In this document: piece after piece, positions 13,875 to 43,198 of the stretch | How positions within the stretch are numbered: the first letter of the stretch is position 1 | How the letters are laid out: each line of letters begins with the position of its first letter | Translations under genes and position numbers: made by a program | NCBI RefSeq assembly: GCF_900115155.1 | Contig: NZ_FOVM01000003.1 | Coordinates: 210,747-274,746, forward strand | Length of the DNA stretch: 64,000 nt | DNA from: Mycetocola miduiensis | GTDB lineage: Bacteria > Actinomycetota > Actinomycetes > Actinomycetales > Microbacteriaceae | Direction of reading: 5' to 3' | The notes under the pieces: generated by a model | Databases searched by the model: none | The model's input: only the letters and a program-made list of their open reading frames with translations | Told to the model about the DNA's origin: nothing

Positions 13875-14756
13875 GTGAGCACAATCGAACTCGAGAAACC
13901 CATCACCGCTACCGCCCAGGTCGGTGCAGCGATGGTCGCCCTCTCCGACCTGCCGAGACGCGCGCCACGGGTGCGCAGCCGGCAGCTCTTCCCGAGCGAG
14001 CCGAAGGGCTGGCTCGTCGCCACCCTCGCCGCCGGCATCGTCATCGCATTGTTCGCCGCCTGGCAGCTGCTCGCCGATGCCGACGTCGTCGACACCTTCT
14101 TCTGGTCAAAGCCCAGCATGGTGTGGGAGTCAGCGGTGATCGCGTTCTCCAACGGCACCATGCTCGGCGACACGCTCTTCACCTTCACCTCAACGATCGC
14201 CGGCTTCGTGCTCGGTGTCGTCGGCGGCGCGGTGATCGGTCTCTCGTTCTGGTGGTCGAGGCTCTACGCCCGCACCTCAGAACCGCTGCTCATCGCGGTC
14301 GAGGCGATGCCCAAGCTCGCCCTCGCTCCGATGATCGTGCTCGCGCTCGGCATCGGAATCGAGTCGAAGATCGCCATGGCCACGGCGCTCGTGATCATCA
14401 TCCAGGTGCTCAACACGCACACCGCGGTCCGCGCGGTCGACCGTGACCTGCAGACACTGCTCTACTCTCTCGGCGCGAGCCGCTGGCAGGTGTTCACCAA
14501 GGTGGTCGTGCCGTCAACAATCTCATCGATTGTCGCGAGCTTCCGGGTGAGCATCGGCCTCGCACTCACCGGTGCGATCGTCGGCGAGTACATCGGCTCA
14601 CAAGAGGGCCTCGGCAAGATGATCCAGTTCGCGGCGTCGAGCTTCGACATCTCACTGATCTGGGTCGGGGTCTTCACACTCGGCATCCTCTCGTTTGTGC
14701 TTTACCTCGCCGTGCTTCTGCTCGAGAAGCTGCTGCTCCGCGCCATCCGCGGCTAA
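13875..14756 (+). CDS. ABC importer permease, SsuC/ThiX type
   Basis: A 293-residue inner-membrane permease with about six helices and the binding-protein-dependent transport signature. The EAA loop contacting the ATPase is seen around RDLQTLLYSLGASRWQVF near residue 200, followed by VVPSTISSIVASFRVSIG. The start is GTG. Between the ATPase and the lipoprotein, it completes an importer for a small anionic or heterocyclic solute. Confidence 0.92.
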   Translation: MSTIELEKPITATAQVGAAMVALSDLPRRAPRVRSRQLFPSEPKGWLVATLAAGIVIALFAAWQLLADADVVDTFFWSKPSMVWESAVIAFSNGTMLGDTLFTFTSTIAGFVLGVVGGAVIGLSFWWSRLYARTSEPLLIAVEAMPKLALAPMIVLALGIGIESKIAMATALVIIIQVLNTHTAVRAVDRDLQTLLYSLGASRWQVFTKVVVPSTISSIVASFRVSIGLALTGAIVGEYIGSQEGLGKMIQFAASSFDISLIWVGVFTLGILSFVLYLAVLLLEKLLLRAIRG

Positions 14757-14802
14757 TCCCCTCATCCCCCGTGTGATCCACCCCCTTCTACAGGAGAGCT
14801 CC

Positions 14803-15804
14803 GTGAAAAAGACCGTTCTATCCACCCTGGCCGCGCTTTCGACGGTTGCCGTATTGAGCGGATGCTCCGCGTCAGCCGCCGGTGAAACCTCCGATTCCGA
14901 AGGTCTCACCAAGATCATGATCGCCGAACCCGTGCACGGCGTCGGCTACCTGCCGCTCTACGCGGCCATGAAAAACGGCTACTTCGAAGACGCCGGGCTC
15001 GACGTCGAAATCACCACCCTCACCGGAGGTGCCCACGTCAATGCCGTGCTCAGCGGCGACGCCTGGGGCTTCATCGGTGGGCCCGAATCAGGAGCCATCG
15101 CCAACGCGAAGGGCGCCGAGCTCGTCACCATCGCGGGCGTCGTCAACAAGGCGAACATCTACTGGACGGCGGCGACCGACGTCGAGATCGACCCCGACGA
15201 CCTGGCCGGCTCGCTCAAGGGCAAGAGCATAGCGATCGGCCGACACGGCGGATCACCCGAGATCATTTCGCTCTACCTCATGCAGCAGTTTGGCATCGAC
15301 CCGGCCGACATGGTGATCACGAACAACGACCAGTCTGGTTCCGAGATCGCCCTCGTCGAGGCCGGCAAGGCCGACATCGCGGTGACCACCGAACCGGTGC
15401 TCGGCCAGGGCATCACCGAGGGCATCTGGACCGAACCAATCGTCAACGTTCCGGCTGAACTCGGTGACTTCGCCTACTCTTCCATCGTCATCGACTCGAA
15501 GACCACGAAGGAGGACCCAGACACCGTCAAGGCGTTCACCGCCGCGCTCGGCAAGGGCATGGACTTTGTCCTCACCGACAAGGAGGGCACCGCCAAGCTC
15601 GCCGCCACCGAATTCCCGACCATGACCGCCGATGTGCTCCAGCCCACCCTTGACCGGGCCTACGCCGACGAACTCTGGGACGGCATCGACATCTCCGACG
15701 AGGGCATCCAACTCGACCTCGACGTCTCCCGCGCGGCCGGGCTGCTCGTCGACGACGGAAAGGTGACCGTCGAGTCACTGCTTGACCGTTCCTTTATGCC
15801 GTAA
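14803..15804 (+). CDS. ABC importer substrate-binding lipoprotein, NMT1/THI5 type
   Basis: A 333-residue lipoprotein. The GTG start follows CAGGAGAGCT. The signal peptide ends in the lipobox LSGC (residues about 18-21), so the protein is anchored outside the membrane. The mature part has the periplasmic-binding fold of the SsuA/NMT1/THI5 group, with GVGYLPLYAAMKNGYFEDAG at the start of the first lobe, then IGRHGGSPEIISLYLMQQFG. THI5/NMT1-like members bind pyrimidines, riboflavin precursors, sulfonates or nitrate. The adjacent RutB-like hydrolase makes a pyrimidine-derived or ureido solute the best guess, but that is inference. Confidence 0.92.
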   Translation: MKKTVLSTLAALSTVAVLSGCSASAAGETSDSEGLTKIMIAEPVHGVGYLPLYAAMKNGYFEDAGLDVEITTLTGGAHVNAVLSGDAWGFIGGPESGAIANAKGAELVTIAGVVNKANIYWTAATDVEIDPDDLAGSLKGKSIAIGRHGGSPEIISLYLMQQFGIDPADMVITNNDQSGSEIALVEAGKADIAVTTEPVLGQGITEGIWTEPIVNVPAELGDFAYSSIVIDSKTTKEDPDTVKAFTAALGKGMDFVLTDKEGTAKLAATEFPTMTADVLQPTLDRAYADELWDGIDISDEGIQLDLDVSRAAGLLVDDGKVTVESLLDRSFMP

Positions 15805-15854
15805 GCACTCGCATCCGCTCCTCATTTTTTTCGAACACGAACAGGACACGAATA

Positions 15855-16499
15855 ATGACGCACTTTCCCTTTCGCTATGACCCCGCACACACGGCCCTCA
15901 TCGTGGTCGATGTGCAGAACGACTTCTGCTCACCCGACGGATCGCTCGCCGGCGTCGGCAACGACGTCTCGGCCGCCGTGGAGATGGTGCCGCGCCTGCA
16001 GGGCCTGATAGAGAACGCGCGTGAGGTCGGCATGCCCGTGGTGTTCATCCAGACCATCCATGACGAGACCAACGACTCGCCGCAGTGGCTCGGCCGCGTC
16101 GATGCCGGTCCGGGCACCGAGCGTCCGGGCATCACTTGCCGCACCGGCAGTTGGGGTGGCGAGTTCTACGAGGTGGCGCCGCAACCCGGTGACCACGTCG
16201 TGATCAAGTACCGCTACAGCGCGTTCATCGGCACCAACCTCGAGATCCTGCTGCGCACACTGGGCGTTCAGTCGCTGCTTTTCACCGGAGTCGCCACCGA
16301 GATCTGTGTCGAGTCGAGCCTGCGCGATGGCCTGTTCGCGGACTACTGGGTGAGCCTCGTCGAGGACTGCGCGGCGTCGTACAGCCAGGCCGCACACGAC
16401 GCATCGGTGTCGGTGGTCGGCAAGCAGTTCGGCACAGTCACCACGAGCACCGAGCTCGCGTCGATCTGGGCGCCGGCTCAGGCACTCGCCGTCGCGTAA
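15855..16499 (+). CDS. Isochorismatase-like cysteine hydrolase, RutB-like
   Basis: A 214-residue cytoplasmic amidohydrolase. The catalytic triad of the family is visible as D19 (VVDVQNDF), K118 (VIKYRYSAF) and C151 (VATEICVESSLRDG), with the cis-peptide GVATE. Overall similarity is to ureidoacrylate/N-carbamoyl amidohydrolases such as RutB and to related pyrimidine or nicotinamide-type amidases. It lies 50 bases after the importer lipoprotein, so it likely hydrolyses the imported compound, releasing ammonia or a carbamoyl group. Confidence 0.9.
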   Translation: MTHFPFRYDPAHTALIVVDVQNDFCSPDGSLAGVGNDVSAAVEMVPRLQGLIENAREVGMPVVFIQTIHDETNDSPQWLGRVDAGPGTERPGITCRTGSWGGEFYEVAPQPGDHVVIKYRYSAFIGTNLEILLRTLGVQSLLFTGVATEICVESSLRDGLFADYWVSLVEDCAASYSQAAHDASVSVVGKQFGTVTTSTELASIWAPAQALAVA

Positions 16500-24337: not shown

Positions 24338-24589
24338 CCACTCTTCTTCTTTCTGGCATTCACTCGCTTCGTCGGCCTTCGAGCAGACTGCGGTATCGAT
24401 CCCCCATGACTTCCGGAGGCATTAGTCCTATCGCGTGGATGGGCGTATCCGGATCCTTACCGTCTTAGGGCGGCGGAGACGTAGAGCACGGAGCGGATAT
24501 CGCCCGTGCTGGTCTGACCATTCGCTGCCTCGGACGCGAGTCAGCGATTCGCTGGTCATGCGAGAAAACGGTTGCCTATAACAAAACTG

Positions 24590-24631
24590 TTGACAGATCT
24601 CGAACCCGTCTTCCATAATGGTCCAACCATT
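24590..24631 (+). promoter_or_regulatory. Sigma-70-type promoter overlapped by a GntR-type operator
   Basis: TTGACA at 24590-24595 and CATAAT at 24614-24619 with an 18-base spacer form a clear promoter ahead of the M24 gene. AATGGT-CCA-ACCATT at 24617-24631 is a perfect 15-bp palindrome of the TGGT-N3-ACCA type bound by FadR-subfamily GntR proteins, and it covers the end of the -10 box. The operon's last gene is such a regulator, so autorepression of the whole operon is the natural reading. A ribosome site AAAGGAG lies just before the ATG at 24658. Confidence 0.6.
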
Positions 24632-24657
24632 GGTCATATCAAAACAAAGGAGTTTCG

Positions 24658-25875
24658 ATGCTTCACACCGACGTGCAGGACATCACTGTTGACGAATATC
24701 GGGGGCGAGTCGCCAAGACTCAGGCGAAAATGTCTGAAGAGGGCTACGACCTGCTTCTGGCTTGGTCGGACAGCTATCGGATGAGCAATGTTCGTTGGCT
24801 CGCGAATTACCGCGCGTTCGACGGCGTGTTCCCCTACCCGGCCATGGTCGTGCTACCGCAAAAGGGCGATCCGATCCTTCTGGCTGAAGGCAGCCTGGTC
24901 AGTTACGCGCAGGACTGCACCTGGATGAATGACGTCCGAGGAATCCGCCAGCAGCTCGCGAATGTCCTTCGTGAGTACGCGGCTTCAGGCACGGTGCGCA
25001 CGGTCGCGATCGCGGGTTACAAGTACCTAGCGGCTGAGTTCCTGGACATCATCAAAGCATCCCTCCCTGATTCCATCGAAATCGTGCCGACCGGCTTCCT
25101 CGACTACTTCAAATCGATCAAGAGCGAGGCCGAGATTCGCAACATGGCCGTCGCCGGTCGCTTGGCAGACATTGGCATCGAGGCTGTGCGCCAGAACACT
25201 TACGAAGGGGTTTCCGAGCGAGAGCTTGCTCGGGCCGCATACGCGGCAATGTACGCCAACGGAGCCGACACTTCATCGTTCGACATCATGGTGCAGACCG
25301 GCGAGAACTCCGCGAACTACTTCCTCGCGCACCCAACTGACCGCAAGCTCCAACACGGCGAGACCATCCTTATCGACATGGGCTGCCGCTACAACGGGTA
25401 CTCGTCCGACATGGCGCGCGGCGTCTCTTTCGGCCCGGTCTCGAGGGACGCACAGCGAATGCAAGAAACCTGCTTGGAAGCGTGGCAGGCGGGATACGAC
25501 GCCCTGCGTGTCGGGATGACTGGCGAGGAAGCGGACGTCGCCGCCGACGACATAATCCGCGCCGCGGGTTACAGCCACTCCGCGGGCGAGGGACGCGGTT
25601 GCGCGCACGGAACCGGGATGGACCCGGAAGAGGAAGGCCCCGTGATCGGTCCTGGTAGCGATTGGGTTTTGACGGCAAATCAGAGTTTTGCCTTCGAGGT
25701 AACCCTCCTGCTCCCGGGCATTGGAGGGACCCGCATCGAGGACGTCGTGATCCTCCGTGAAGAGGGTGCTCAGTCTTTGACCCACTACGACTACGTCAAC
25801 AACTGGGATTGGGTGACCAAGCCGGCTGACGCTCCTGTCATCCCGAAGCTCAACCACCCCATCGAGCTTCCTTAA
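24658..25875 (+). CDS. M24-family metallohydrolase (creatinase/Xaa-Pro peptidase-like)
   Basis: A 405-residue protein with the two-domain pita-bread layout. An N-terminal creatinase-like domain (residues about 1-150) precedes a C-terminal M24 domain. All five dinuclear metal ligands of the peptidase branch are present: D240 (ILIDMG), D251 (SSDMARG), H317 (CAHGTGMD), E347 (AFEVTLL) and E361 (RIEDVV). It should therefore be a metal-dependent peptidase or amidohydrolase rather than a metal-free creatinase. It is the first gene of the operon, five or more bases before a ribose-type ABC importer, so the imported solute may carry a cleavable amide or prolyl bond. The substrate is not known. Confidence 0.9.
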   Translation: MLHTDVQDITVDEYRGRVAKTQAKMSEEGYDLLLAWSDSYRMSNVRWLANYRAFDGVFPYPAMVVLPQKGDPILLAEGSLVSYAQDCTWMNDVRGIRQQLANVLREYAASGTVRTVAIAGYKYLAAEFLDIIKASLPDSIEIVPTGFLDYFKSIKSEAEIRNMAVAGRLADIGIEAVRQNTYEGVSERELARAAYAAMYANGADTSSFDIMVQTGENSANYFLAHPTDRKLQHGETILIDMGCRYNGYSSDMARGVSFGPVSRDAQRMQETCLEAWQAGYDALRVGMTGEEADVAADDIIRAAGYSHSAGEGRGCAHGTGMDPEEEGPVIGPGSDWVLTANQSFAFEVTLLLPGIGGTRIEDVVILREEGAQSLTHYDYVNNWDWVTKPADAPVIPKLNHPIELP

Positions 25876-25894
25876 CGAAATGGGAGCCGCAGAC

Positions 25895-26665
25895 ATGAAC
25901 GCGGTTGTTCTGGAGTTGAAAGACATCAGTAAGTCTTTCGGTGCAGTGAACGCTCTCACTGGAGTCGACCTGACGGTTCACGCGGGCGAGGTGGTCGCGC
26001 TGGCTGGCGACAACGGAGCTGGCAAGTCGACCCTGGTGAAGATCATCACCGGTGTCCATGCGCCCTCGAGCGGTAGCATGAAGATCAACGGCAAGCTCGT
26101 TCATTTCAACACGCCGAAAGAAGCAGCCAACGCAGGGGTGGCTGCGGTCTACCAGGATCTCAGCCTGTGTGACAACCTCAGCGCCGCGGCAAACCTCATG
26201 CTCGGCCAAGAGCCACGTAGGCGCGGCTGGCGAGCTTGGCTGGGCATGATTGACACCGACGCCATGCACGTCAAAGCGAGGACGGCGTTATCTGACCTCG
26301 GGATCAGAACCCTGGCGAGCACGGAAACACTTGTGAGCTTTCTCTCGGGTGGACAGCGGCAAGCAATCGCAATTGTTCGCGCATCGCTGGAGGAGGCGAA
26401 CATCATCGTCCTCGACGAGCCGACTGCGGCCCTCGGTGTGCGCGAACGAGACCTCGTCTACTCCCTGATCGAGAAACTCAAGTCATCGGGATACGGGATC
26501 GTCCTGATCTCGCACTCCGTGCCCGAAATCCTACGGCTCGCTGATCGGGTGTCGGTGCTCAGACTTGGCCGCATTGCGACGACCCTCGTAGGCGCGGAGA
26601 TGGAGGGCGATGCGATCGTCTCGGCCATCACTGGATCGAAGGTAGAAGAAGGTGAGAAGGTATGA
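25895..26665 (+). CDS. Ribose-type ABC importer ATPase (single nucleotide-binding domain)
   Basis: A 256-residue ATPase of the carbohydrate-uptake (CUT2) branch, with one domain rather than the usual RbsA/XylG double domain. Walker A (GDNGAGKST), Q-loop (VAAVYQDLSLCDNLSAAANL), signature (LSGGQRQAI), Walker B (IIVLDEPTAALGV) and switch His (VLISHSVPEI) are all intact. The start at 25895 has GGGAG upstream; an ATG at 25880 would add five residues. It overlaps the permease start by four bases. Single-domain members must dimerise to form the ATPase pair. Confidence 0.92.
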   Translation: MNAVVLELKDISKSFGAVNALTGVDLTVHAGEVVALAGDNGAGKSTLVKIITGVHAPSSGSMKINGKLVHFNTPKEAANAGVAAVYQDLSLCDNLSAAANLMLGQEPRRRGWRAWLGMIDTDAMHVKARTALSDLGIRTLASTETLVSFLSGGQRQAIAIVRASLEEANIIVLDEPTAALGVRERDLVYSLIEKLKSSGYGIVLISHSVPEILRLADRVSVLRLGRIATTLVGAEMEGDAIVSAITGSKVEEGEKV

Positions 26666-27939
26666 CGACGACCGCTCTAGATTCACGGCTCGCCCCTTCG
26701 GCGGCCAAACCCGTCGAAGGCTTCTCGAATCAGGCGTACTCCATGAGGCGTGAGAACGGGGGCTACAATCCGGTCCCCGGTCTGGTGGCCCTCGCGATCA
26801 TCTACGTGTTCTTCGCAGCTGTTGCGCCAGTGATGCTGGGGAGCTTCACACTCCAGAGCATCGTGCTGTCCATGGTGAGCTACGGGTTCGTCGCTCTCGG
26901 TGTTGTGCTCGTGCTCACTCTCGGTGAGATCGACCTCTCTGTCGGTTCGGTCGCGGGTCTCGCATCCGCGGTCACGGGCACGCTCCTCCAAGTGATGCAC
27001 TTCCCCTGGTGGGTCAGCATCATCGCGGGAATCGCGGCAGGGATGGCGGCCGGCGTCATACAGGGTCTCCTCGTAACCAAACTTGCCGTTCCCTCGTTCG
27101 TTATCACTTTGGGCGGTTTGCTTAGTTGGCAAGGATTGCAGCTGATGATCCTGAATGACACCACGCTGAATGTCGTTAGCGACGAGTTGGATGTCATCGG
27201 CAGCGGAGTCGTAACTCAGCCTGTCAGCTGGTTTCTTGCACTCGTGGTGGTCGTGGTCTGCGGCCTCGAGCGATTCGTTCCCTTGATAAGAAAGGGAGCG
27301 TCCTCAGATGCATGGCTACGGCGTGGCGCTGCGGTAGCGGGCATCGCGATTGCAGCGTTCGGTTGCGTCGCTCTCTTTAGCCGAGGCAGCGGTGTACCGA
27401 TGGTCTTGTGGATCTTCGCGGGGCTAGTTGGTCTTATGGGATTTATTCTCCAGAAGACGCGTGTTGGTCGAGCCGTGTACGCGGTCGGCGGCAATCGGGA
27501 GGCAGCACGCCGTGCCGGATACCGCCCCGATTTGGTGCGAGTGGTCGTGTTCGGTCTCTCCGGTGGATTTGCCGCACTCGGCGGTGTGTACATCACAGCC
27601 CGCGGAGGAACCGCGGACACCTTGACCGGCAGCGGCAGCCTCGTCCTGATAGCCATCGCTGCGGCCGTCATCGGTGGGTGCAGCCTTTTCGGCGGCCGCA
27701 GTTCACCTTGGGCCGCGTTCATCGGAGCCGCCGTGCTGGCGACCCTGGTTCAAGGTCTCAACATCACCAATCAGGGCGCGGATCTCCAGCTGATCCTTCA
27801 GGGTGCGATCCTCGTTGCAGCCGTCGCGGTCGACGCTATCTTGCGCCGACGCATTGCAAACCGCACTTCCGCACCGTCGCGTTCATGGCTCAGCCGGCGC
27901 TTTGGACGCGGTGATCGACCGGCACCAACACAACAATGA
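26662..27939 (+). CDS. Ribose/xylose-type ABC importer permease
   Basis: A 425-residue CUT2 permease (RbsC/XylH-like) with about ten helices. Typical segments are ALGVVLVLTLGEIDLSVGSV near residue 80, FVITLGGLLSWQGLQL near 160, VGRAVYAVGGNREAARRAGY near 270 and the final LLIAIAA-type helix before LFGGRSSP. The length and the long central helix region are closer to XylH than RbsC. It overlaps the ATPase by four bases. The C-terminal tail is basic and cytoplasmic. Confidence 0.92.
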   Translation: MTTTALDSRLAPSAAKPVEGFSNQAYSMRRENGGYNPVPGLVALAIIYVFFAAVAPVMLGSFTLQSIVLSMVSYGFVALGVVLVLTLGEIDLSVGSVAGLASAVTGTLLQVMHFPWWVSIIAGIAAGMAAGVIQGLLVTKLAVPSFVITLGGLLSWQGLQLMILNDTTLNVVSDELDVIGSGVVTQPVSWFLALVVVVVCGLERFVPLIRKGASSDAWLRRGAAVAGIAIAAFGCVALFSRGSGVPMVLWIFAGLVGLMGFILQKTRVGRAVYAVGGNREAARRAGYRPDLVRVVVFGLSGGFAALGGVYITARGGTADTLTGSGSLVLIAIAAAVIGGCSLFGGRSSPWAAFIGAAVLATLVQGLNITNQGADLQLILQGAILVAAVAVDAILRRRIANRTSAPSRSWLSRRFGRGDRPAPTQQ

Positions 27940-27990
27940 CCGAGGCAACACCATCCACCTGAAGCACCTTCACTATAGAGAGGAACAACG

Positions 27991-29124
27991 ATGTTTTTCA
28001 CAAGAGGTTCACGCCCCCCGAAAGCCCACCTGCTCGTCCGCACGCTGGCGGTTGTACTGGGAACTACGGCACTGCTAGCGACGTCAGGATGTGGCGCCAT
28101 CATCGCCGAGGAGGGCACCGGGAAGAACGACAACTCCGGGGACGACACCAAAGTCGTGGCTATGTTGATGTCAGACAGCACCACCTCACGCTGGTTCCAA
28201 GTCGACGTTCCCAACGTCACCGATGCGCTTGAAGAGATCGATCCGGAGGCAAAGGTGATCTCGTTCAACGCGGAGAGCTCACCCGACACGCAGCTCTCTC
28301 AAGCTCGTACGGCGATCGCGCAGGGAGCAAAGGTTCTGATCGTCGTGTCCGTGGACCCGACCTCGGCAGGCGCAATCGTGGACCTTGCGCATGAAAATGA
28401 TGTACAGGTGATTGCGTACGTGCACCAGATCACCGAGGCGCCGATTGACTATTTCGTGGGTTTCGATCCCATTGCCATCGGAAACCAGGAGGGACAATTC
28501 GTCGCTGATAACACCAAATCAGGTGACAACATCGTCCTGATCAACGGATGGGAAGCAACCTCGCTCGCGCACGTGTTCCGTGAAGGGTACCTGGAGGTCC
28601 TGCAGCCACTGTTCGACAGCGGTGAGCGAACCTTGATTGGCGAGGCATTCACTCCCGAGTGGCTCGCGTCAGAGGCTCAGTCGCAGATGGACGCATTCCT
28701 CGCGCAGTCCGGCAACGACGTCCAGGCGGTGCTCTCAGAAAACGATCAGATGGCGGGCGGCGTAATCGCATCGCTGAAGACCGCAGGGCTCGAAGGAAAG
28801 GTCATGGTTACCGGCCTCGACGCAGAGCCCGCCGCGCTCCAGCGAATTCTGTTGGGCACTCAGGCAATGACCATCTACCCCGCCTTCAAGACCGAGGCGA
28901 CCAATGCCGCAACCATCGCCGCAGCGATCCTCAATGGTGAGACACCGGATGAATCTTTGTTCGGCGGTGAAGCCGTCGATACGATCGACGGTGAAACGGC
29001 GCCGTGGGCCGTCACTGAGACTGTCGTCGTCACAAAGGAGAACATGCAGGTCGTCGTGGATGATGGATATATCAGCCTCGATACCCTGTGCAACGGAGTG
29101 CCTGCCGAGGGCGTCTGCGGTTAG
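27991..29124 (+). CDS. Sugar-type ABC substrate-binding lipoprotein
   Basis: A 377-residue lipoprotein of the type 1 periplasmic-binding fold (XylF/RbsB group). The signal peptide ends in ATSGCG (lipobox Cys near residue 34), followed by an acidic linker. The mature part carries DTQLSQARTAIAQGAKVLIV and the hinge region ending with the usual DAEPAALQRILLGTQAMTIY. The ATG at 27991 follows AGAGAGGAACAACG. It completes the importer with the two preceding genes. Binding residues are not readable with confidence, and the first-lobe aromatic WFQVD suggests a sugar-like solute. Confidence 0.92.
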   Translation: MFFTRGSRPPKAHLLVRTLAVVLGTTALLATSGCGAIIAEEGTGKNDNSGDDTKVVAMLMSDSTTSRWFQVDVPNVTDALEEIDPEAKVISFNAESSPDTQLSQARTAIAQGAKVLIVVSVDPTSAGAIVDLAHENDVQVIAYVHQITEAPIDYFVGFDPIAIGNQEGQFVADNTKSGDNIVLINGWEATSLAHVFREGYLEVLQPLFDSGERTLIGEAFTPEWLASEAQSQMDAFLAQSGNDVQAVLSENDQMAGGVIASLKTAGLEGKVMVTGLDAEPAALQRILLGTQAMTIYPAFKTEATNAATIAAAILNGETPDESLFGGEAVDTIDGETAPWAVTETVVVTKENMQVVVDDGYISLDTLCNGVPAEGVCG

Positions 29125-29192
29125 TCGAGAATGCGTCCTGGGGCCGGGATAACATGACCGGCCCCGGGACCCCGCCGCTAAGGAGAATGAGC

Positions 29193-30104
29193 ATGACCGA
29201 GCGCAACACCGAGTCAGAGGCGGAACCACAGCCCTTCATCGGGTTCTCGCAGTTCGTGATGAATCATCCCTTCCGCATCGCCAATGTTGAGACGATCAAG
29301 GAAGCGGCTCGACGGGCCGGCGCTCGTATCGTCGTGACAGACGCAGAGGGCAGCGCGGAAGTGGAAGCTCAGAACGTGCAGTGGATGCTTGATCAGGGGG
29401 TCGATGCTGTGATCATCAGCAGCCTGTCGGGAGCGGAATCCCATGAAATGTACCGCCGTGTCGCCGAAACGGGCACACCACTGATTATCTTCGCAAGCGG
29501 GCTGCCTTCCGATGAATATGACGTGCCGTACACGACTTACGTTGGGTCGAACGAAAAATGGGTGGGGGCACAGGCAGCTGAGTACATAGGCAAACGGCTT
29601 GGAGTCAGCGGCGGTAAGATCGTCGTGCTCTACGGACCGATGGAGTCCTCGAACGCTCGGCTGCGCGGTAGCGGATTCAAGCTCGAACTCGAACGATCGT
29701 ATCCGCAGGTGGAGATCACCGGGCACCTAACAGGCGACTGGCTACGTGACTCGGCGTTCGAGCTGATGACGCAATACTTGACTCAGCATCCGCACGTGGA
29801 TGCAGTGTTCGCCGAGAACGATGAGATGGCGCTCGGGGCGATGGACGCTTTGGTCCGTTGGGATCCCCATGCGAGTACTTTCATCGTCGGCGTGGATGGT
29901 CAACAGGCCGCATTGTGTGAGATATGGTCAGGCGGACCCTTCGCAATGACAGTTCGAACCGAGTTTGATGGCGACGCCGCCGTTCATGCGGCCATCGACG
30001 CACTGCGTGGTCGGGACGTGCCGAGTCGCATTGAGTTGGCGGCGTCAGTGATCACAGTCAAGAATATCGACCAGTTCCTGCACCAGCGCCGGACGACATG
30101 GTGA
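29193..30104 (+). CDS. Second substrate-binding-like protein without a signal peptide
   Basis: A 303-residue type 1 periplasmic-binding fold protein. After about 12 polar residues the first strand begins at once (PFIGFSQFVMNHPFRIANVE), so there is no signal peptide, lipobox or membrane segment. There is also no helix-turn-helix as in LacI regulators. The usual features follow: VDAVIISSLSGAESHEMYRR, HVDAVFAENDEMALGAMDAL, and GGPFAMTVRTEFDGDAAVHA. I chose the ATG at 29193 because AAGGAG lies seven bases before it. It lies 68 bases after the secreted binding protein and 13 bases before the GntR gene. A cytoplasmic solute sensor or carrier is the simplest idea. A mis-annotated start is unlikely, since no hydrophobic stretch lies upstream. 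Confidence 0.88.
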   Translation: MTERNTESEAEPQPFIGFSQFVMNHPFRIANVETIKEAARRAGARIVVTDAEGSAEVEAQNVQWMLDQGVDAVIISSLSGAESHEMYRRVAETGTPLIIFASGLPSDEYDVPYTTYVGSNEKWVGAQAAEYIGKRLGVSGGKIVVLYGPMESSNARLRGSGFKLELERSYPQVEITGHLTGDWLRDSAFELMTQYLTQHPHVDAVFAENDEMALGAMDALVRWDPHASTFIVGVDGQQAALCEIWSGGPFAMTVRTEFDGDAAVHAAIDALRGRDVPSRIELAASVITVKNIDQFLHQRRTTW

Positions 30105-30117
30105 GAGGAGAATCACG

Positions 30118-30870
30118 ATGACCGAGAGCCATGCGTCCGGGGCCGGCGACAACTTGGACCCTACCGAGAACGGAGGCGACATCCAGGAGGTCCGTCGTGT
30201 GCGCTCGTTCGAGGGGATCGTCGACCAGATACGCCGGGCTATCTTCAGCGGTCGATACTTGCCTGGCAGCCGTTTTGCGTCCGAGCGAGATCTGGCCAAA
30301 CAGCTTGGCGTGAGCCGGACTACACTGCGCGAGGCGCTTCGCGCCCTGGAGTCTGAGGGTCTAGTGGAAGTGCGCTTGGGAAGCGGGGGCGGCATCTTCG
30401 TCTCCAAACCGAGCGCAGCGCGGGTCGGTAAAGCCTTGGACTCGATGCTCGTTCTGCGGCGGACAAACCAGTGGGAGATCGAGGAGTTCAGGCGCGATTT
30501 CGAGTCTCAGAACGCTTCACTCGCTGCGCGCCGAGCGACTCACGAGGACATGGAAGTGATCTCCAACAGCCTTAATCGTCTCCGCGCGGCTATGGGCGCC
30601 AGCGGGCCACCTTCTGGGCAGCTCGATCGGCTCACCGGGGATGTCCATATAGCCATTGCCGCGGCGACCCACAACGACGTCCGTCTGTCGATCATGATGG
30701 CCCTAATCCGGGCGACCTCGCGTGTCCTGGCTCAGCGACCGAACTCCCGCACACGTCGCGTCTATGCCCACGCACTCGCCGACTATGAGGATATAGTTGC
30801 CGCCATCGCGCTTCCAGACCCCGATCGGGCCGCGGCTCTAATGCTGCAGCGTCTCAATCACATCTCATAG
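30118..30870 (+). CDS. GntR-family (FadR subfamily) transcriptional regulator
   Basis: A 250-residue regulator with an N-terminal winged helix (residues about 25-95: FEGIVDQIRRAIFSGRYLPG, DLAKQLGVSRTTLREALRAL, then VRLGSGGGIFV) and an all-helical FCD domain (residues about 105-245). FCD metal ligands of the usual D/H-H-H pattern are plausible (D176 in LTGDVHIAIAAATHND and following His). It closes the operon that starts at 24658 and probably binds the palindrome at 24617-24631, repressing the operon until the imported solute or its breakdown product is present. Confidence 0.92.
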   Translation: MTESHASGAGDNLDPTENGGDIQEVRRVRSFEGIVDQIRRAIFSGRYLPGSRFASERDLAKQLGVSRTTLREALRALESEGLVEVRLGSGGGIFVSKPSAARVGKALDSMLVLRRTNQWEIEEFRRDFESQNASLAARRATHEDMEVISNSLNRLRAAMGASGPPSGQLDRLTGDVHIAIAAATHNDVRLSIMMALIRATSRVLAQRPNSRTRRVYAHALADYEDIVAAIALPDPDRAAALMLQRLNHIS

Positions 30871-31006: not shown

Positions 31007-31606
31007 TTGACCGGGCTTCCATCGACGCCGGACCCATTGGTAGCGCAGGGCCTCCTCGAGACGCAGCGCGGCCGCGGCGGAGGTTCGTTCGTGCGCGAGC
31101 AGTGGACGTCGACGTCGAACGCGTCGGTGCACCGCACTCTCAGCGGGCGCTGGAACGAAATGCGCGACACCTGCGAGGCGGTAAGCCGCTTGCACGGCAC
31201 CATTGCCCGAGCCGCGGCGGAGAACCGCACGGACGATGACATCGAGCGGATACGCGAGCGCCTGCAGGCCTTCCGGCTCGCGGAGTCTGGGCTCCAGTCG
31301 CAGAAGGCCGACGAACTGCTGCACATCGCAATCAGCGACGCCGCCCACAACGCGACCCTGCAGTCGGTGCTTGTGGAACTCGAGTCGCGCGTAAGCATCT
31401 CGGCCCCCGCACACCTCTGGGGCGAACCCGGCGGCATGCGCCAGATGGAAGCCCGCGCTCTCATCGACCACGAGAACCTGGTCACCGCTATCTGCAACGC
31501 CCAGCCGGATGCCGCCAGCGCGATCGCACGTGAGCACGCCCGCATCGACCTCGAGCTGCTCGAGGCAGCGCTTCACCGGGCGGGTGCACCGCTCGACAGC
31601 ATGTAA
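31007..31606 (+). pseudogene. GntR/FCD regulator lacking its DNA-binding domain
   Basis: From about 31030 the plus frame matches the end of a GntR wing (LVAQGLLETQRGRGGGSFV) followed by a complete FCD helical domain to 31606. The helix-turn-helix before it is missing, and the upstream bases are unrelated. A protein begun at 31007 would be about 199 residues with an effector domain only. It is most likely a truncated gene, though a regulatory half-protein cannot be excluded. The 136 bases before it show nothing else. Confidence 0.7.
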
Positions 31607-33873: not shown

Positions 33874-35562
33874 ATGGGCGGCTCAGACCCCACCAGCGCG
33901 GGAGCGCCGGTCTCTGACGGCGGCCCGCACTCGTGGCTGTATCGAATCTTCCTGGCGGGGTCGGAGATGTTCGAGCGCCCGACCCCCAGCGACACGTTCC
34001 GCATCGCGAGCAACACGGTCGCCGCGATCTCGGCCTGCACGGTGATCGCCACCTACACCGTCGAACAGGGGCGTCTGCGCAGGTTCTCCGGCGCGCCCGA
34101 CGCGAAGCTGGATCTCCTGGTGGAGGCCGCCGATTATGCCGACGGCGTTCTCCCGAGCACGGACGGCGCTTGGCGGTACGCCCTCTTCCTCGCCGGCAAT
34201 TCGGTTCAGCACGGGTGTCTCGTCATCCGGTCGCAGTTACCGCCGTCCAGCGATGAGCTGTTCCTTCTGAGCGCACTCGCAAAACCGACGGGAGCCGCGC
34301 TAGCGACCTCCGAGTTGCTCCTTCGCGAGCGCCGCCGGACTGCCGAGCTCCGAAAGCACAGTGAAGCTCAGGCCGACATGAATCAGGCGATGTCGAGCAC
34401 GATTCAGCGGCTCGGGGCGCGGCAGCGCGTCCGCGATTCGTTCGCGACAGCCGTGGCCTCCGGCGGGGGTGAGACCGCGATCCTGGAGGCGCTCCGCGCG
34501 CTGACCGGACGGCCCGCGGTGCTTCAGGACTCCTTCGGCGACGAGCGGGCACGAGCCGCCCCCGAGGACCAGCGAGGGCCGAGAGCGGCTCTCGAGCAAG
34601 ACGACACTTTGCCGACGACCGACCGGGCCGTTCAGGAGTGGTGCGCGTCCGCCGTCCGCTCGAACGGCCAACTCCTCGGTTTCGTCGGCATACTCGATGC
34701 GGACCACACCGTGACGGACGACGATCGGATCGCGTTGGAGTATGCGAGCACTTCCCTCGCGATTGAGCTTAGCCATCGCCGGAATCTGGCTGAGATCGAA
34801 CTGCGCCTCGGACGGGACCTTGCCGCCGATCTGGTGTCGGGAGCGGACGCCGAAGGATCACGGATCCGCGCTGAGGCACTCCATTACGACCTTGGCCAGC
34901 CTCAGCGAGTCGTGCTCGCCTCGTGGGTGCTCCCTTCCCCGAAGGGAATCCAGACCGGTGCAGCACTCCGGCAAGCGCTCACGGCGCTGCAGGTCCCGGC
35001 GCTGGTCTCGCAGTATCGAGACTCGTCGCATCGGGACTCGGCCATGGCCGTCGTCGCGGACGATCGAAACCGGTCCGGGCTTTACGAGCAGCTCGCAATC
35101 GCCTTCGGCAGCCCGAAGGGGTCGATCGGAGTCGGAGGACGCTGCTCCGTGGCTGACTTGCCGACATCGTTCGCACAGGCGCGCAGAGCCCTGCGGATCC
35201 GAACCGAGTCGCGGGAACCGTACGGGCTCAGCAATCACGACGATCTCGGCCTGCTCCGGATACTGGACAGCAGCGACGGCGGTGCGGAAGTGGAGAGCTT
35301 CGTGCAGGAGTGGCTCGGCGTCCTCCTCGATCACGACCGGGTGCACCACTCCGAGCTCGTGCACACTCTGAGCGTGCACCTGGACTCCGGCGGGAACTAC
35401 GACCGCACGGCCGCGGCCTTGATCGTCCACCGGAGCACCGTCCGGTATCGGCTGGGCCGTATCGGCGAGTTGACCGGTCGCGACCTGTCCGATCCAGACA
35501 CCCGGTTCCACCTGCACGTCGCGACGCGCGCCTCCGCGGCGGTTCGTGGCGGCTCGCTTTGA
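33874..35562 (+). CDS. CdaR/PucR-family transcriptional regulator with GAF-like sensor
   Basis: A 562-residue regulator. Residues about 30-300 carry GAF-like sensor folds (FRIASNTVAAISACTVIATY early on, then LLGFVGILDADHTVTDDDRI). Residues about 305-430 form the GGDEF-like linker of CdaR proteins. The C-terminal PucR-type helix-turn-helix is clear near residues 495-555 (HSELVHTLSVHLDSGGNYDR, HRSTVRYRLGRIGELTGRDL). A GGTCACGGG lies before the ATG. It is the only gene on its strand here, so its target is unknown. The SMR and amine-catabolism genes downstream on the other strand are candidates. Confidence 0.88.
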   Translation: MGGSDPTSAGAPVSDGGPHSWLYRIFLAGSEMFERPTPSDTFRIASNTVAAISACTVIATYTVEQGRLRRFSGAPDAKLDLLVEAADYADGVLPSTDGAWRYALFLAGNSVQHGCLVIRSQLPPSSDELFLLSALAKPTGAALATSELLLRERRRTAELRKHSEAQADMNQAMSSTIQRLGARQRVRDSFATAVASGGGETAILEALRALTGRPAVLQDSFGDERARAAPEDQRGPRAALEQDDTLPTTDRAVQEWCASAVRSNGQLLGFVGILDADHTVTDDDRIALEYASTSLAIELSHRRNLAEIELRLGRDLAADLVSGADAEGSRIRAEALHYDLGQPQRVVLASWVLPSPKGIQTGAALRQALTALQVPALVSQYRDSSHRDSAMAVVADDRNRSGLYEQLAIAFGSPKGSIGVGGRCSVADLPTSFAQARRALRIRTESREPYGLSNHDDLGLLRILDSSDGGAEVESFVQEWLGVLLDHDRVHHSELVHTLSVHLDSGGNYDRTAAALIVHRSTVRYRLGRIGELTGRDLSDPDTRFHLHVATRASAAVRGGSL

Positions 35563-36833: not shown

Positions 36834-38240
36834 CTAGCGTCCGCTAACCGCATCTGCGATCCGGGCCGCTATATGCGTGCGGGGATTGGCGGTCTCGTAT
36901 TCGCGTCGATCTGCGAACCGGTATGCCGAATAGAGTGTCGAGGCGCCGATCCACCGCAGCGGTTCCATTTCCCAGTTTCTCGCCCTGTGATTGACCCAGG
37001 GAAGAGCCGTCAGCGCAGTCTGTTCGCCAAGTATCAAGTCACGCACGGTCCGCGCGGCGAGATTCGTGCCGCTTAGGCCGTGTCCGACATAGCCGCCAGC
37101 GGTAGCGATCCCGGCGGCAGGGTCGTAGGTCACAGCCGCCGACCAGTCGCGAGGCACACCGAGGACTCCCGACCAGGAGTGATGCAGGCGGGTTCGGCCA
37201 AGTCCGGGGAACAGCTCTCTGAGCCGCGTCGCAAGCTGGCCGATCGCCTTCTGAGCCGTCTTCCCATCCCTATCAAAGCTTGATGCGAAGTTGTACGGGA
37301 CCCCCCGGCCGCCGAGGGCGATCCGACCATCAGCGGTGCGCTGGACGTACGCGAAGCTGTGCGCCATGTCACCGAGCAACTCAGCGCCATTCCAGCCGAC
37401 GGAATCCAGTTCGGAATCACTAAGGCGTTCGGTGACGATCATGCTGCTATTCATCGGCAGGAGCCGACGCCTCTGTCCCGGGAGAGAACTCGTGTAGCCC
37501 TCCACTGCCTGAACGATGTTCCGAGCGCCCACTTCTCCTTTGTCTGTGGTGACGACGTGTGGGCTGATGGCCGTCACCGTTGTGCCTTCGTATATCCGGA
37601 CCCCAGCGCGCTCCGCCGCGGCCGCGATGCCCTGGACGTAGTGCATGGGGTGCACGCGGGCGCAATGAGGGGTCCAGTACGCGCCAAGGGCGCCACGGAC
37701 TCGGACGCGGTCCGAGAGCTCTGCCGGACTCAACTCGAACAAGTCGTCGTCACCCCAGCCGTTCTGACGCAGCGACTTGAGATTGGAGCGCATCCGTGTG
37801 AGTTGAGCCGGGTTGGTTGCCACATGGATGAGACCGTCCTTGTCGACGTGCTCGCCAAACCCTTCTGCATTGGCCACGCGGACAGATTCGTCAACGGCGC
37901 CGAACATCTCTCGCTGGAGGGCGATAGCGCTGGCATGCCCGCCTTCACGTGCATAGTGCCGGAACAATCCCGCCGGTTTCGCGCTCATCCAGCCGCCATT
38001 GCGGCCTGAAGCGCCGAATCCGACGAACTCCTGCTCCAGAACCGCAATCGTCAACGTGGGGTCGCTCTGCTTCAAGTAGTAGGCAGTCCAGAGCCCTGTT
38101 AAGCCTGCGCCAACAATGGCCACGTCAACCTCTATCGGTCCCGTCAGCGCGGAACGAACAGATGGGCGGCCGGAGTCGCGCAGCCAGTACGAGACTCCCC
38201 CGTTGGCGAAGGTGTTGCTGAGTCCTTGGATATTGCTCAC
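36834..38240 (-). CDS. FAD-dependent amine/amino-acid oxidoreductase (DAO, PuuB-like)
   Basis: A 468-residue flavoenzyme of the D-amino-acid-oxidase fold. The dinucleotide motif is VDVAIVGAGLTGLWTAYYLK near residue 40, followed by FGASGRNGGWMSAK, which is typical of gamma-glutamylputrescine oxidase and glycine/sarcosine-type enzymes. The C-terminal flavin contact appears as GYVGHGLSGTNLAARTVRDL. A GTG at 38240 with GGAA upstream is preferred; a GTG at 38282 would add 14 residues. It closes the minus-strand amine cluster after a 115-base gap. The most likely role is oxidation of an amine or N-substituted amino acid to an aldehyde and ammonia or amine. Confidence 0.88.
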   Translation of the reverse strand: MSNIQGLSNTFANGGVSYWLRDSGRPSVRSALTGPIEVDVAIVGAGLTGLWTAYYLKQSDPTLTIAVLEQEFVGFGASGRNGGWMSAKPAGLFRHYAREGGHASAIALQREMFGAVDESVRVANAEGFGEHVDKDGLIHVATNPAQLTRMRSNLKSLRQNGWGDDDLFELSPAELSDRVRVRGALGAYWTPHCARVHPMHYVQGIAAAAERAGVRIYEGTTVTAISPHVVTTDKGEVGARNIVQAVEGYTSSLPGQRRRLLPMNSSMIVTERLSDSELDSVGWNGAELLGDMAHSFAYVQRTADGRIALGGRGVPYNFASSFDRDGKTAQKAIGQLATRLRELFPGLGRTRLHHSWSGVLGVPRDWSAAVTYDPAAGIATAGGYVGHGLSGTNLAARTVRDLILGEQTALTALPWVNHRARNWEMEPLRWIGASTLYSAYRFADRREYETANPRTHIAARIADAVSGR

Positions 38241-38355
38241 CAGAGGTTCCTGTCTTCCTCGATTTGTCCCGCCCACGTTCACGGTGGAGTGCGTTCATTG
38301 GGGTGCCGCGCAGGCCCTCATCGGTCGCCCGTGGGGGCCTGCGCCGTGCAGTCTG

Positions 38356-39774
38356 CTACGCGAGGATTCTCGCTTTGCGGCGCTGATAAGTGAGTTTCAT
38401 CAGCACGATGTAGACCAGCATCGTCGTTGCCACCGCGGGCAGAGTGGCGGTGGTGTATGGGAACACCGGGGCGGACGTGAAGGTGATCGGGTCGAGGATC
38501 AAGAAGAAGACCACCATGCCGACAGCAAGGCTGATGAAGCCGACGAGATTGAACCCGCCGGTGTACCAGTATGCCGATCCACGTGAGTCGCTAAACAGAC
38601 CATCGATGTCGAGCTGCTGCCTGCGGACGATGAAATAGTCCGCTATCTGCAGCCCGCAGAGTGGCCCGAAGACAACGGCGGAGAGCGTCAGGAAGGTACC
38701 GAAGTTCTCGTAGAACGGTTCAGCCGCGAACACGATGACGGCAATCGAGACAATCACAGACACCCCGGTCGCGCGACGCCAACTCAGCCTCGCATCGATC
38801 GAGGGCTGCTGCTTCAATGCCAGGGCAGCGGTGTAGACACCGACCATTGTCGTTCCTATGTTGGAGATGATGACAAAGGCGAATGCCGGCAGCGCTAAAG
38901 CGAGGCCCCCCATTTGGAAGAGCCCAGCGATCGGGTTTCCAGCGGATCCAGGAAAGAGCAGTTCGGAATAGAGACCGATCAGGCAGATGATCGCGACGGC
39001 CAAACCAAGTCCGAGAACCACCGGGAGGATGGACTTTCGAGTGCCTTTGTTGAAGCGGCTCATGCCCCCGACATATGGCCACCAAGACAACGCTGTGGCG
39101 AGCATCAGTTCGATTCCCGTTGTGTAGTCGAGGATGGGGTTGTCACTCGCGAAGGCGGGTTGGGCAGCGAACAGTTTCTCGAACCCGAGGGAGGCGACGA
39201 TCGCAATGATGACCATGAGGCCTAGTGCGATCACCGACGTCGCCACGATCGGGCCGACCCGCCGAAGGATGCCAGGGCCGCGGCTAATGAAGAGGAACAC
39301 GACGACAAGACACACGATGCTGGTCGCACCTTGCACTATCCATGACAGCTCCGCTGGGATCAAATCGAGCGCAACAGCAAGGTACGCCGCCGATTTTCCG
39401 CTGAGGATCATGAGGGTTGTGCCCCATCCGATCGTGAACAGGAAGATCAGGGCGACGCTGACGCGTGATCCGCGGTTACCGAACACGACTCGGGTCGATC
39501 GCACCGCTTCGAGTCCGTATCGGGTGGCCATCGGCACGGTCGCGAGCCAGACCAGGAACATGCCGGCGAGCATGGCGGCTGGCATGACGATTGTGCCCTT
39601 GCCGGCCGGCAGGTAATAGGCCACGTAGGCACCGATGATGAAACACCAGGTGGCCACGGCGGCCTGTGCGGAGCTGAAGAACAGTGTTCTGGGCTTCCAC
39701 TGTCGCTCGCTGGACAGCAGCGGGAGTGACCCTTCGGTGCCGGAGACCGAAACTCCATCCATGGATGTTGTCAC
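38356..39774 (-). CDS. NCS1-like (purine/cytosine permease family) transporter
   Basis: A 472-residue membrane protein with about 12 helices and the LeuT-like fold of nucleobase-cation symport permeases. Early markers are SSAQAAVATWCFIIGAYVAY and LVWLATVPMATRYGLEAVRS. Later come LATALSWWPYVGGMSRFN (helix 6 region) and FGPLCGLQIADYFIVRRQQL. In this group members import nucleobases, hydantoins, allantoin, thiamine precursors or amines. The setting among amine oxidases favours an amine or N-heterocycle. I start at the GTG 39774, which overlaps the preceding small gene's stop by four bases with GGGTGG upstream. Confidence 0.88.
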   Translation of the reverse strand: MTTSMDGVSVSGTEGSLPLLSSERQWKPRTLFFSSAQAAVATWCFIIGAYVAYYLPAGKGTIVMPAAMLAGMFLVWLATVPMATRYGLEAVRSTRVVFGNRGSRVSVALIFLFTIGWGTTLMILSGKSAAYLAVALDLIPAELSWIVQGATSIVCLVVVFLFISRGPGILRRVGPIVATSVIALGLMVIIAIVASLGFEKLFAAQPAFASDNPILDYTTGIELMLATALSWWPYVGGMSRFNKGTRKSILPVVLGLGLAVAIICLIGLYSELLFPGSAGNPIAGLFQMGGLALALPAFAFVIISNIGTTMVGVYTAALALKQQPSIDARLSWRRATGVSVIVSIAVIVFAAEPFYENFGTFLTLSAVVFGPLCGLQIADYFIVRRQQLDIDGLFSDSRGSAYWYTGGFNLVGFISLAVGMVVFFLILDPITFTSAPVFPYTTATLPAVATTMLVYIVLMKLTYQRRKARILA

Positions 39775-39977
39775 AGGAACCACCCCACAATCAGCGCGCC
39801 GATGGGCAAGACAACGGTGAGGATGATGAGCGGCAGATACTGGCGGCCGTGGAGCTTCGGTTCGAGGGCGTTGGAGTGCCACTCTCTGAGGCGAGTCTGC
39901 ATCTCGCGTTGATAGATGTCGGCGGTGATGTTCGAGACGGTGGTTGTTGTGATGGCGTCGGCGTTATGAATGCTCAT
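39771..39977 (-). CDS. 68-residue single-helix membrane peptide coupled to the NCS1-like permease
   Basis: A small protein with a polar N-terminal half (residues 1-44, including REMQTRLREWHSNALEPKL) and one C-terminal membrane helix (LPLIILTVVLPIGALIVGWF). I do not recognise a family. It starts two bases after the monoamine oxidase stop, and its TGA overlaps the permease GTG, so all three are translationally linked. By analogy with small helper subunits of other solute symporters, it may assemble with the permease, but that is inference. Confidence 0.75.
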   Translation of the reverse strand: MSIHNADAITTTTVSNITADIYQREMQTRLREWHSNALEPKLHGRQYLPLIILTVVLPIGALIVGWFL

Positions 39978-39979
39978 GA

Positions 39980-41317: not shown

Positions 41318-41403
41318 TGACAGTTCTCCATTCGGGTTGAGGGCGCTTTTGTGCCCGGGTACTGAGTTGAAAATGTGGGTCGAGCGTATAGCCCGGTGCG
41401 GAA

Positions 41404-42957: not shown

Positions 42958-43198
42958 TGTCTTTCCTTTGGTTCGGTCGTGAGGTGTTACTGGATGATTC
43001 AAGTGGACTATCGCCAGGTACCGAATCGTACCCAGATATGAATTATTCGAATTTGTTGGGCTTGAGACTGAAACGTCTGACGACGCGTCCTGTCTTGGGG
43101 GCTCGCTCAGGTGGCCATTACCGTGCACTTGACAGCGAGGTACAGAATCGGGGCGAATATCTCCTCGCGGGAGACCGCACTGTCTGTCCGGGCGCCGG

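What the first reader, a model, noticed from the sequence alone, without database searches (positions are those of the whole stretch)
24590..30870. Compact M24 hydrolase + ribose-type importer + two binding proteins + GntR operon of unknown substrate
Seen: six plus-strand genes with short gaps or overlaps, one strong promoter, one GntR-type palindrome over the -10 box, and a FadR-type GntR gene at the end. Known: CUT2 importers take sugars, and M24 enzymes cleave amides or Xaa-Pro bonds. Inferred: the imported solute combines a sugar-like or polar part with an amide that the M24 enzyme opens. I know of no named pathway with exactly this gene set.
Basis: partly seen in the sequence, partly recalled or inferred. 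Interest (0 to 1): 0.62.

Follow-up and report, generated by a model that had tools for sequence, protein, structure and literature searches.

The report
Sugar-acid operon with re-tooled peptidase
Six genes form an apparently self-regulated bacterial operon that imports a small solute and processes it with a protein that looks like a peptidase but has probably been re-tooled for sugar-acid breakdown, so its substrate and chemistry are still open and testable.

Summary
Six plus-strand genes (24658-30870) follow one strong promoter with a FadR-type operator on the -10 box. I add a second operator 109 bp upstream. Both recur at 110 bp spacing in a contig titled Microbacteriaceae, and one recurs in a Solirubrobacterales contig. 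There M24 (73-74%), the signal-less binding protein (47-48%) and GntR (41%) persist while the importer differs.

The M24 protein is probably not an ordinary Xaa-Pro peptidase. It belongs to a small clade (9 rows, support 100/99) with a GMDPEE motif in place of the prolidase HE motif. Histidines at four prolidase columns are replaced with one exception, and one of five metal ligands varies. All 9 rows lie beside genes of carbohydrate transport or metabolism families. Distant members (35-37%) sit in hexuronate loci (glucuronate isomerase or UxuA, UxuB-family dehydrogenase, IolB-type isomerase).

Best reading: an inducible import-and-first-step operon for a sugar-acid-like solute, with M24 as a non-peptidase enzyme on a hexuronate-type conjugate. 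Substrate and chemistry are unproven, and the window's own genome shows no UxaC, UxuA or IolB match. New variant of a known kind.

The parts
24510..24520 (.).
   Evidence: one of only two TGGTNNNACCA in the window; paired site at 110 bp spacing in L043; the same 11-mer at L044:1049
24590..24619 (+). Promoter TTGACA-18-CATAAT
   Evidence: 11 of 12; same hexamers and spacing in L043
24619..24629 (.). Operator TGGTCCAACCA overlapping the -10 box
   Evidence: identical 11-mer in L043; fits the FadR-subfamily TKGT-3 nt-ACMA boxes (passages of PMC4494728)
24658..25875 (+). M24-fold enzyme of the GMDPEE clade, 405 aa
   Evidence: Pfam PF00557 1.2e-43; clade support 100/99; residue comparison
25880..26665 (+). 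CUT2-type single-domain ABC ATPase (start may be 25895)
   Evidence: Pfam PF00005; nearest NCBIfam AraG/YtfR/RbsA; the 25 families shown of 189 are all below cut-off
26662..27939 (+). CUT2 permease, 425 aa
   Evidence: PF02653 2e-33; GguB 189 bits against cut-off 450
27991..29124 (+). Exported binding protein SBP1, XylF-like, probable lipoprotein (by reading)
   Evidence: PF13407; xylF 207 bits against cut-off 390; alignment to 3m9w
29193..30104 (+). Binding protein SBP2 without visible signal sequence, RbsB/YtfQ-like
   Evidence: PF13407; 47-48% relative, also without visible signal, in the Solirubrobacterales M24 locus; that genome scores 612 bits and is the only one of 316 Actinomycetota genomes above 152
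30118..30870 (+). FadR-subfamily GntR regulator (HTH + FCD)
   Evidence: PF00392, PF07729; 41% to the divergent GntR of L044

Best explanation
This is a substrate-inducible operon for taking up and opening one sugar-acid-like solute. The GntR protein holds the promoter shut from one operator on the -10 box, probably with help from a second operator 109 bp upstream, until a small ligand releases it. SBP1, the permease and the ATPase import the solute. SBP2 stays in the cytoplasm and binds the same or a related ligand, as a sensor or buffer. The M24 protein does the first step. It keeps the pita-bread fold and, in the window, all five metal ligands, but prolidase histidines are replaced, so it is probably a re-tooled enzyme in the way creatinase, DoeA or DddP are, most likely splitting a C-N or other bond of a hexuronate-type conjugate so that the sugar acid can enter central metabolism. 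Shown: gene set, operator sequences, clade, residue changes, company of sugar-family genes. Inferred: repression, cooperation of the two sites, cytoplasmic place and role of SBP2, and the chemistry.
For: Gene content and promoter. Operators shared by three actinobacterial loci and otherwise absent from the window. M24 + GntR + SBP2 kept in L044 while the importer differs. SBP2: 1 of 316 genomes above 152 bits, the one with the M24 gene. Clade 100/99. Metal ligands D240, D251, H317, E361 in 9 of 9; E347 is E in 4, V in 3, K in 2. Company: L078 has UxaC (glucuronate isomerase 505 bits, cut-off 387), a UxuB-family dehydrogenase (323, below cut-off 603), IolB (278, cut-off 205), GntK and TRAP subunits. 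L041/L042 have UxuA (L042 copy 404, cut-off 200), a UxuB-family dehydrogenase (417, below 603), IolB (334, cut-off 205) and an MHS symporter (430, cut-off 443). L045-L047 have an MHS-type symporter and an IolB-family gene (246, 251, 245 bits). L067 has binding proteins, Gfo/Idh/MocA and a TIM-barrel isomerase. Control: efp/nusB/aroQ motifs in 18 of 28 canonical-motif M24 loci, 0 of 9 clade loci. KduI, of the IolB Pfam family, facilitates hexuronate conversion in E. coli (abstract of PMC3578941).
Against: The window's genome (listed 100% complete) has no UxaC, UxuA or IolB match, and neither the window operon nor L044 carries a hexuronate enzyme. So the hexuronate link rests on 35-37% relatives, and on the 60% Paenibacillus relatives through IolB alone. 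L078 has both UxaC and an IolB-type gene, so IolB is not simply a replacement. UxaC loci of the L043 and L044 genomes lack the operator. The window M24 keeps all five metal ligands, and it and L043 carry a His at 225, two residues from a prolidase His column, so hydrolysis of an amide or even a peptide is not excluded. DddP, DoeA and creatinase were not aligned residue by residue with the clade. No ligand or activity is known.
Confidence: 0.48

Rival explanations
1. Uptake of a plain sugar (xylose or ribose-like) with an ordinary intracellular prolidase carried along in the operon.
For: Best named relatives of the importer parts are XylF/RbsB/GguB/AraG. M24 best PDB matches by score are prolidases. 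The window protein keeps all five metal ligands and has H225 near a prolidase His column.
Against: The listed equivalog cut-offs are missed. His at columns 223, 224, 313, 324 in 25, 21, 25, 27 of 28 canonical-motif M24s is replaced in the clade with a single exception, L041 at 313 (the outgroup was selected for H or Y at 324). At the place of the Asp-Arg pair of XylF/RBP, SBP1 reads V-H and SBP2 A-S (the pair's role is recalled). No sugar kinase or isomerase in the operon.
Confidence: 0.15
2. Uptake of an amide or other N-containing polar solute that is not a sugar acid (creatine-like, ectoine-like, amidated cyclitol), with M24 as amidohydrolase.
For: Creatinase and DoeA are M24-fold non-peptidases acting in catabolism (recalled). 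A DoeA structure has the highest TMq among the 50 listed matches (0.74). DoeA NCBIfam models match nearly end to end at 71-74 bits.
Against: DoeA cut-offs of 575-613 bits are not met. Neighbouring genes across the clade are of carbohydrate families. The model is poor around the active site (pLDDT under 50 at 308-333), so its TM ranking means little.
Confidence: 0.22
3. The M24 protein is a lyase or other non-hydrolase (as DddP is), acting on a uronate-type carbon skeleton rather than splitting an amide.
For: DddP lyases are M24-fold enzymes with a binuclear metal site (passages of PMC4108388). The clade lost prolidase histidines and E347 is V or K in 5 of 9 rows. IolB-type isomerases next door in 5 of 9 rows (3 of them closely related Paenibacillus) could take an aldehyde product.
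Against: No direct evidence of elimination chemistry; no DddP sequence was compared; the window and L044 lack the IolB partner, and L043's contig and genome show none.
Confidence: 0.15

Closest known systems
Xaa-Pro dipeptidase (PepQ-type M24B)
   Same: Pita-bread fold, Creatinase_N domain, D240/D251/H317/E347/E361 in the window protein
   Different: Prolidase histidines replaced at four columns, HE to PEEE, separate clade, no efp/nusB/aroQ motif nearby
Ectoine hydrolase DoeA and creatinase
   Same: M24-fold catabolic non-peptidases (recalled); a DoeA structure has the top TMq of the 50 listed
   Different: DoeA cut-offs unmet; different gene company; residues not compared one by one
DddP DMSP lyase
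   Same: M24 fold used for a non-peptidase reaction (passages)
   Different: No DddP sequence compared here
CUT2 importers (XylFGH, Rbs, YtfQ, GguAB/ChvE)
   Same: Family of each part
   Different: Below the listed equivalog cut-offs; single-domain ATPase; second binding protein without visible signal
Hexuronate loci (UxaC/UxuAB; GarD branch)
   Same: Distant clade members sit in loci with UxaC or UxuA and a UxuB-family gene; a related, non-clade M24 sits in a Leisingera GarD locus
   Different: The window operon has none of these enzymes and its genome has no UxaC or UxuA match

Membership tests
M24 fold family | Peptidase_M24 profile over the catalytic domain | tested here: met
   149.7 bits, cut-off 23; fold search E down to 3.5e-22
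Xaa-Pro dipeptidase | Five metal ligands | tested here: met
   All five in the window protein; E347 not kept in 5 of 9 clade rows
Xaa-Pro dipeptidase | Histidines at the columns where canonical M24B rows have them | tested here: not met
   Columns 223, 224, 313, 324: His in 25, 21, 25, 27 of 28 outgroup rows; in the clade 0, 0, 1 (L041), 0 of 9. Outgroup picked by a motif asking for H or Y at 324. The window and L043 have a His at 225, two residues off
Xaa-Pro dipeptidase | Activity on Xaa-Pro | not testable with these tools
   Needs an assay
Ectoine hydrolase DoeA | NCBIfam cut-off | tested here: not met
   73.6 against 575 and 71 against 613 bits
Creatinase | Direct comparison of creatine-binding residues | not tested
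   Only distant PDB match 1chm, 80 bits with the clade profile
CUT2 sugar importer | ATPase + BPD_transp_2 permease + Peripla_BP_4 protein in one operon | tested here: met
CUT2 importer of a named sugar | Equivalog cut-off for xylose, ribose and others | tested here: not met
   families listed there: for example xylF 206.9 against 389.55
FadR-subfamily GntR | GntR HTH + FCD domain and a TKGT-3 nt-ACMA site at the promoter | tested here: met
   binding itself not tested
Hexuronate catabolic operon | UxaC/UxuA/UxuB in the operon or genome | tested here: not met
   None in the operon; no UxaC or UxuA match in G000; UxuB and uronate dehydrogenase were not searched in G000

The most novel reading that the evidence does not exclude
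The GMDPEE clade is an unrecognised carbohydrate-active branch of the M24 fold: a metal enzyme that frees or transforms hexuronate-type acids from a conjugate, recruited in three phyla with different importers (CUT2, TRAP, MHS) and repeatedly paired with IolB-type isomerases. In the actinobacterial branch a cytoplasmic solute-binding protein works with the GntR repressor as an internal sensor of the same solute.
Probability: 0.33. Interest if true: 0.7.

Novelty: new variant of a known kind. Interest (0 to 1): 0.5.

Why it matters
Many M24 genes are annotated as Xaa-Pro peptidases by homology alone (the plasmid hits listed show examples). A clade with altered active-site residues that keeps company with sugar genes would change that annotation for its members and would point to a missing first step in the use of sugar-acid conjugates. 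The conserved signal-less binding protein next to a GntR repressor offers a defined case for asking what cytoplasmic solute-binding proteins do.

Tried and rejected
Ordinary prolidase: judged unlikely on residues, tree and neighbourhood. Ectoine hydrolase: cut-offs unmet. Inositol pathway: the IolB link suggested it, but the window's genome and the L043 and L044 genomes (MAGs, so possibly incomplete) have no IolB match, and the three Paenibacillus genomes hold another IolB of 367-372 bits elsewhere against 245-251 for the M24-linked copies. Regulon link between the operator and the UxaC loci of the L043 and L044 genomes: none found. Viral contigs: no relatives of SBP2 or M24. The SBP2 model was poor (mean pLDDT 64.1) and was not searched. 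An early idea that SBP2 has two extra arginines against the ribose-binding protein was weakened: the R28 region aligns with an Arg of a YtfQ-type protein. Other M24 hits in Bacillota (G982, G1070) are prolidases by motif, and G1244 M24s are a different branch. Plasmid searches: the window M24 matched 459 records at 1e-5, of which I opened two (H1, H2); the L041 M24 at 1e-30 found only the two Paraburkholderia records; the L067 M24 at 1e-25 found 7 records, of which I opened two (H55, H59). H59 (Bacillus badius, prolidase motif) lies beside oligopeptide-transporter genes. Neighbourhoods of the other plasmid hits were not examined. Papers: nothing on M24 with IolB, uronate or glucuronamide function turned up (listings and abstract starts only).

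Limits of the comparisons: the 28-row outgroup is what remained of 36 length-filtered sequences (from 46 loci) after a motif filter HG.G...[HY]E; a few of them (L012, L016, L019, L030) are divergent and may not be prolidases. L042 was left out of the residue table and M24 tree as a near-copy of L041. Three Paenibacillus rows and the window/L043 pair are close kin, so nine rows are about six independent loci. Most large genome searches scored only a few candidates per genome (4, up to 6, 7), so absences are approximate.
Full report
Observation. The region 24590-30870 holds six plus-strand genes in close succession: an M24-fold protein (24658-25875), a single-domain ABC ATPase (25880 or 25895-26665), a CUT2 permease (26662-27939), an exported binding protein SBP1 (27991-29124), a second binding protein SBP2 without a visible signal (29193-30104) and a FadR-type GntR (30118-30870). 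Pfam confirms each. NCBIfam names only relatives; none of the families listed reaches its cut-off for these six (the lists for the ATPase and GntR show the best 25 of 189 and of 30). The promoter TTGACA-18-CATAAT is the best of four sites in the region.

Regulation. TGGTNNNACCA occurs twice in 64 kb (mean 0.6 in 20 Markov simulations), at 24619 on the -10 box and at 24510. In L043, a contig titled Microbacteriaceae with a 95% identical M24, both sites occur at 110 bp spacing with the same promoter; DNA homology to the window begins at 24584, just before the -35. In L044, a Solirubrobacterales contig, one site (TGGTCTGACCA at 1049) lies between the part of the divergent GntR that matches the window's (from 957 downward) and the M24 gene (from 1193); the open reading frame of that GntR runs on over it. 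The stretches upstream of the Paenibacillus, Paraburkholderia, L067 and L078 genes that I examined lack it. The site fits the FadR-subfamily boxes given in PMC4494728 (passages read). Autorepression with two cooperating sites is inferred.

Conserved core. In L044 the order is GntR (divergent), M24, two-domain ATPase, two permeases, a binding protein, a Gfo/Idh/MocA oxidoreductase, SBP2, an aldo/keto reductase. M24 is 73-74% and SBP2 47-48% identical to the window's, GntR 41%, but the importer differs: the exported binding proteins align by BLAST only over short stretches, the best 32 residues at E 0.023. Neither SBP2 has an obvious signal sequence (by reading). With the two SBP2 sequences as a profile, 6 of 316 Actinomycetota genomes matched at 1e-40, the L044 genome at 612 bits and the next at 152. 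So SBP2 seems to travel with the M24 gene rather than with a given transporter; this rests on two loci, as L043 ends inside the permease.

Rarity and spread. Matches to the M24 profile: 3 of 299 genomes of the window's family at 1e-55, including its own, the 35% relative G1538, and G1589, which may be the L043 MAG itself; 1 of 396 in the phylum draw at 1e-60; 3 of 104 Paenibacillaceae at 1e-60; 4 of 398 Bacillota at 1e-55, of which only the known Paenibacillus belongs to the clade. The five other genomes of the same genus have none at 1e-55. The operon is 60.2% GC against 63.6% for the rest of the window, in the lowest 3% of overlapping same-size windows; in L043 it is 58.8% against 64.4% upstream. 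Horizontal transfer is likely but not shown.

The M24 protein. Nine sequences (window, L043, L044, three Paenibacillus, a second P. alginolyticus gene L067, P. caribensis L041, genome G1538 in L078) form one clade, support 100/99, on a 43-row tree. All carry GMDPEE; eight read HGxGMDPEEE and L067 reads HATGMDPEED. Against 28 M24 rows with the canonical HGxGxxxHE-type motif, D240, D251, H317 and E361 are kept in 9 of 9 and E347 in 4 of 9 (V in 3, K in 2). Columns 223, 224, 313 and 324, which are His in 25, 21, 25 and 27 of the 28, are non-His in 9, 9, 8 and 9 of the nine; the exception is L041 at 313. The outgroup was chosen by a motif that asks for H or Y at 324, so that column is partly by construction. 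The window and L043 proteins have a His at 225, two residues from one of these columns, where six rows have Arg and one Leu. Residues constant in the clade and rare in the outgroup include D38, R52, D55, K152, Q213, P323 and E324, with R41 also constant but found in 5 of 28. The AlphaFold model has mean pLDDT 72.9 and is poor at 308-333; among the 50 listed PDB matches the highest TMq is a DoeA structure, 0.74, while the best E-values are prolidases. DddP shows that the fold can host a lyase (passages of PMC4108388).

Gene company. All nine clade rows, about six independent loci, lie beside genes of carbohydrate transport or metabolism families; for the window and L043 this is the CUT2 importer itself. 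L078: glucuronate isomerase (505 bits, cut-off 387), UxuB-family dehydrogenase (323, below 603), IolB (278, cut-off 205), gluconokinase, TRAP subunits, and a LacI-like gene by reading. L041/L042: UxuA (404, cut-off 200, L042 copy), UxuB-family dehydrogenase (417, below 603), IolB (334), MHS symporter (430, cut-off 443); a GntR gene follows in L041. L045-L047: MHS-type symporter, M24, a diverged IolB-family gene, then a GntR-like gene that tblastn ties to the window's in L045 and L046. L067: binding proteins, two-component genes by reading, Gfo/Idh/MocA, TIM-barrel isomerase nearest IolO but below its cut-off. Outside the clade, a Leisingera M24 sits among TRAP subunits upstream of an oxidoreductase, an aldolase, a GarR-type and a GarD gene, as annotated, and falls next to the clade at 94/99, though on a long branch. 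As a control, efp, nusB or aroQ motifs appear in 18 of the 28 outgroup loci and 0 of 9 clade loci.

Mechanism. The most economical reading is import of a sugar-acid-like solute followed by an M24 step that yields a hexuronate-type product. KduI, of the same Pfam family as IolB, facilitates the conversion of galacturonate and glucuronate in E. coli (abstract of PMC3578941), which makes IolB-type partners sensible. At the place of the Asp-Arg pair that holds sugars in XylF and RBP (roles recalled), SBP1 reads V-H and SBP2 A-S, so a plain aldose is a poor guess for the ligand.

Against. The window's genome has no IolB, UxaC or UxuA match, so the product must enter metabolism another way or be something else; UxuB and uronate dehydrogenase were not searched there. 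The UxaC loci of the L043 and L044 genomes do not carry the operator. The substrate, the chemistry and the role of SBP2 are inferences.

Verdict. The operon is real and its control region is conserved. The novelty is the M24 clade and its partner SBP2, not the importer. New variant of a known kind, interest 0.5.

Noticed in passing
window 31007-31606 (+): FCD domain of a second FadR-type regulator without a GntR helix-turn-helix match; the frame upstream reaches a stop within about 35 codons, so it looks like a truncated remnant just behind the operon.
   Followed up: partly
window 36834-43212 (-), 33874-35562 (+): FAD oxidase-like gene, NCS1-type transporter, further FAD-type protein, aldehyde dehydrogenase and a PucR regulator: a possible amine or nitrogen-compound catabolic cluster, also low in GC.
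   Followed up: no
window 13875-16499 (+): ABC permease and NMT1/THI5-type binding protein genes followed by an isochorismatase-family hydrolase; solute unknown.
   Followed up: no
window 55547-56497 (+): Integrase core domain (rve) below Pfam's gathering score by whole-protein bits 38.5 or so against 32.6 is above it: a sign of a mobile element in the window.
   Followed up: no
L084 7998-9155: Leisingera thetidis plasmid: M24 gene annotated as Xaa-Pro peptidase inside a TRAP + GarD + GarR-type + SMP-30 locus, another branch of sugar-linked M24.
   Followed up: partly
L079 9258-10418 (-) and 634-1806 (-), L080 8075-9244 (-): Three M24 genes in one Bacillota genome (G1244) whose metal Asp positions look changed; two lie by LacI-like genes and the first also by a CUT2-like importer (by reading and tblastn).
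   Followed up: partly
L045 11219-12064, L046 6075-6893, L047 11219-12025: Strongly diverged IolB paralogues next to M24 keep the SSYPPHKHD motif, while the same genomes hold another IolB of 367-372 bits elsewhere.
   Followed up: partly
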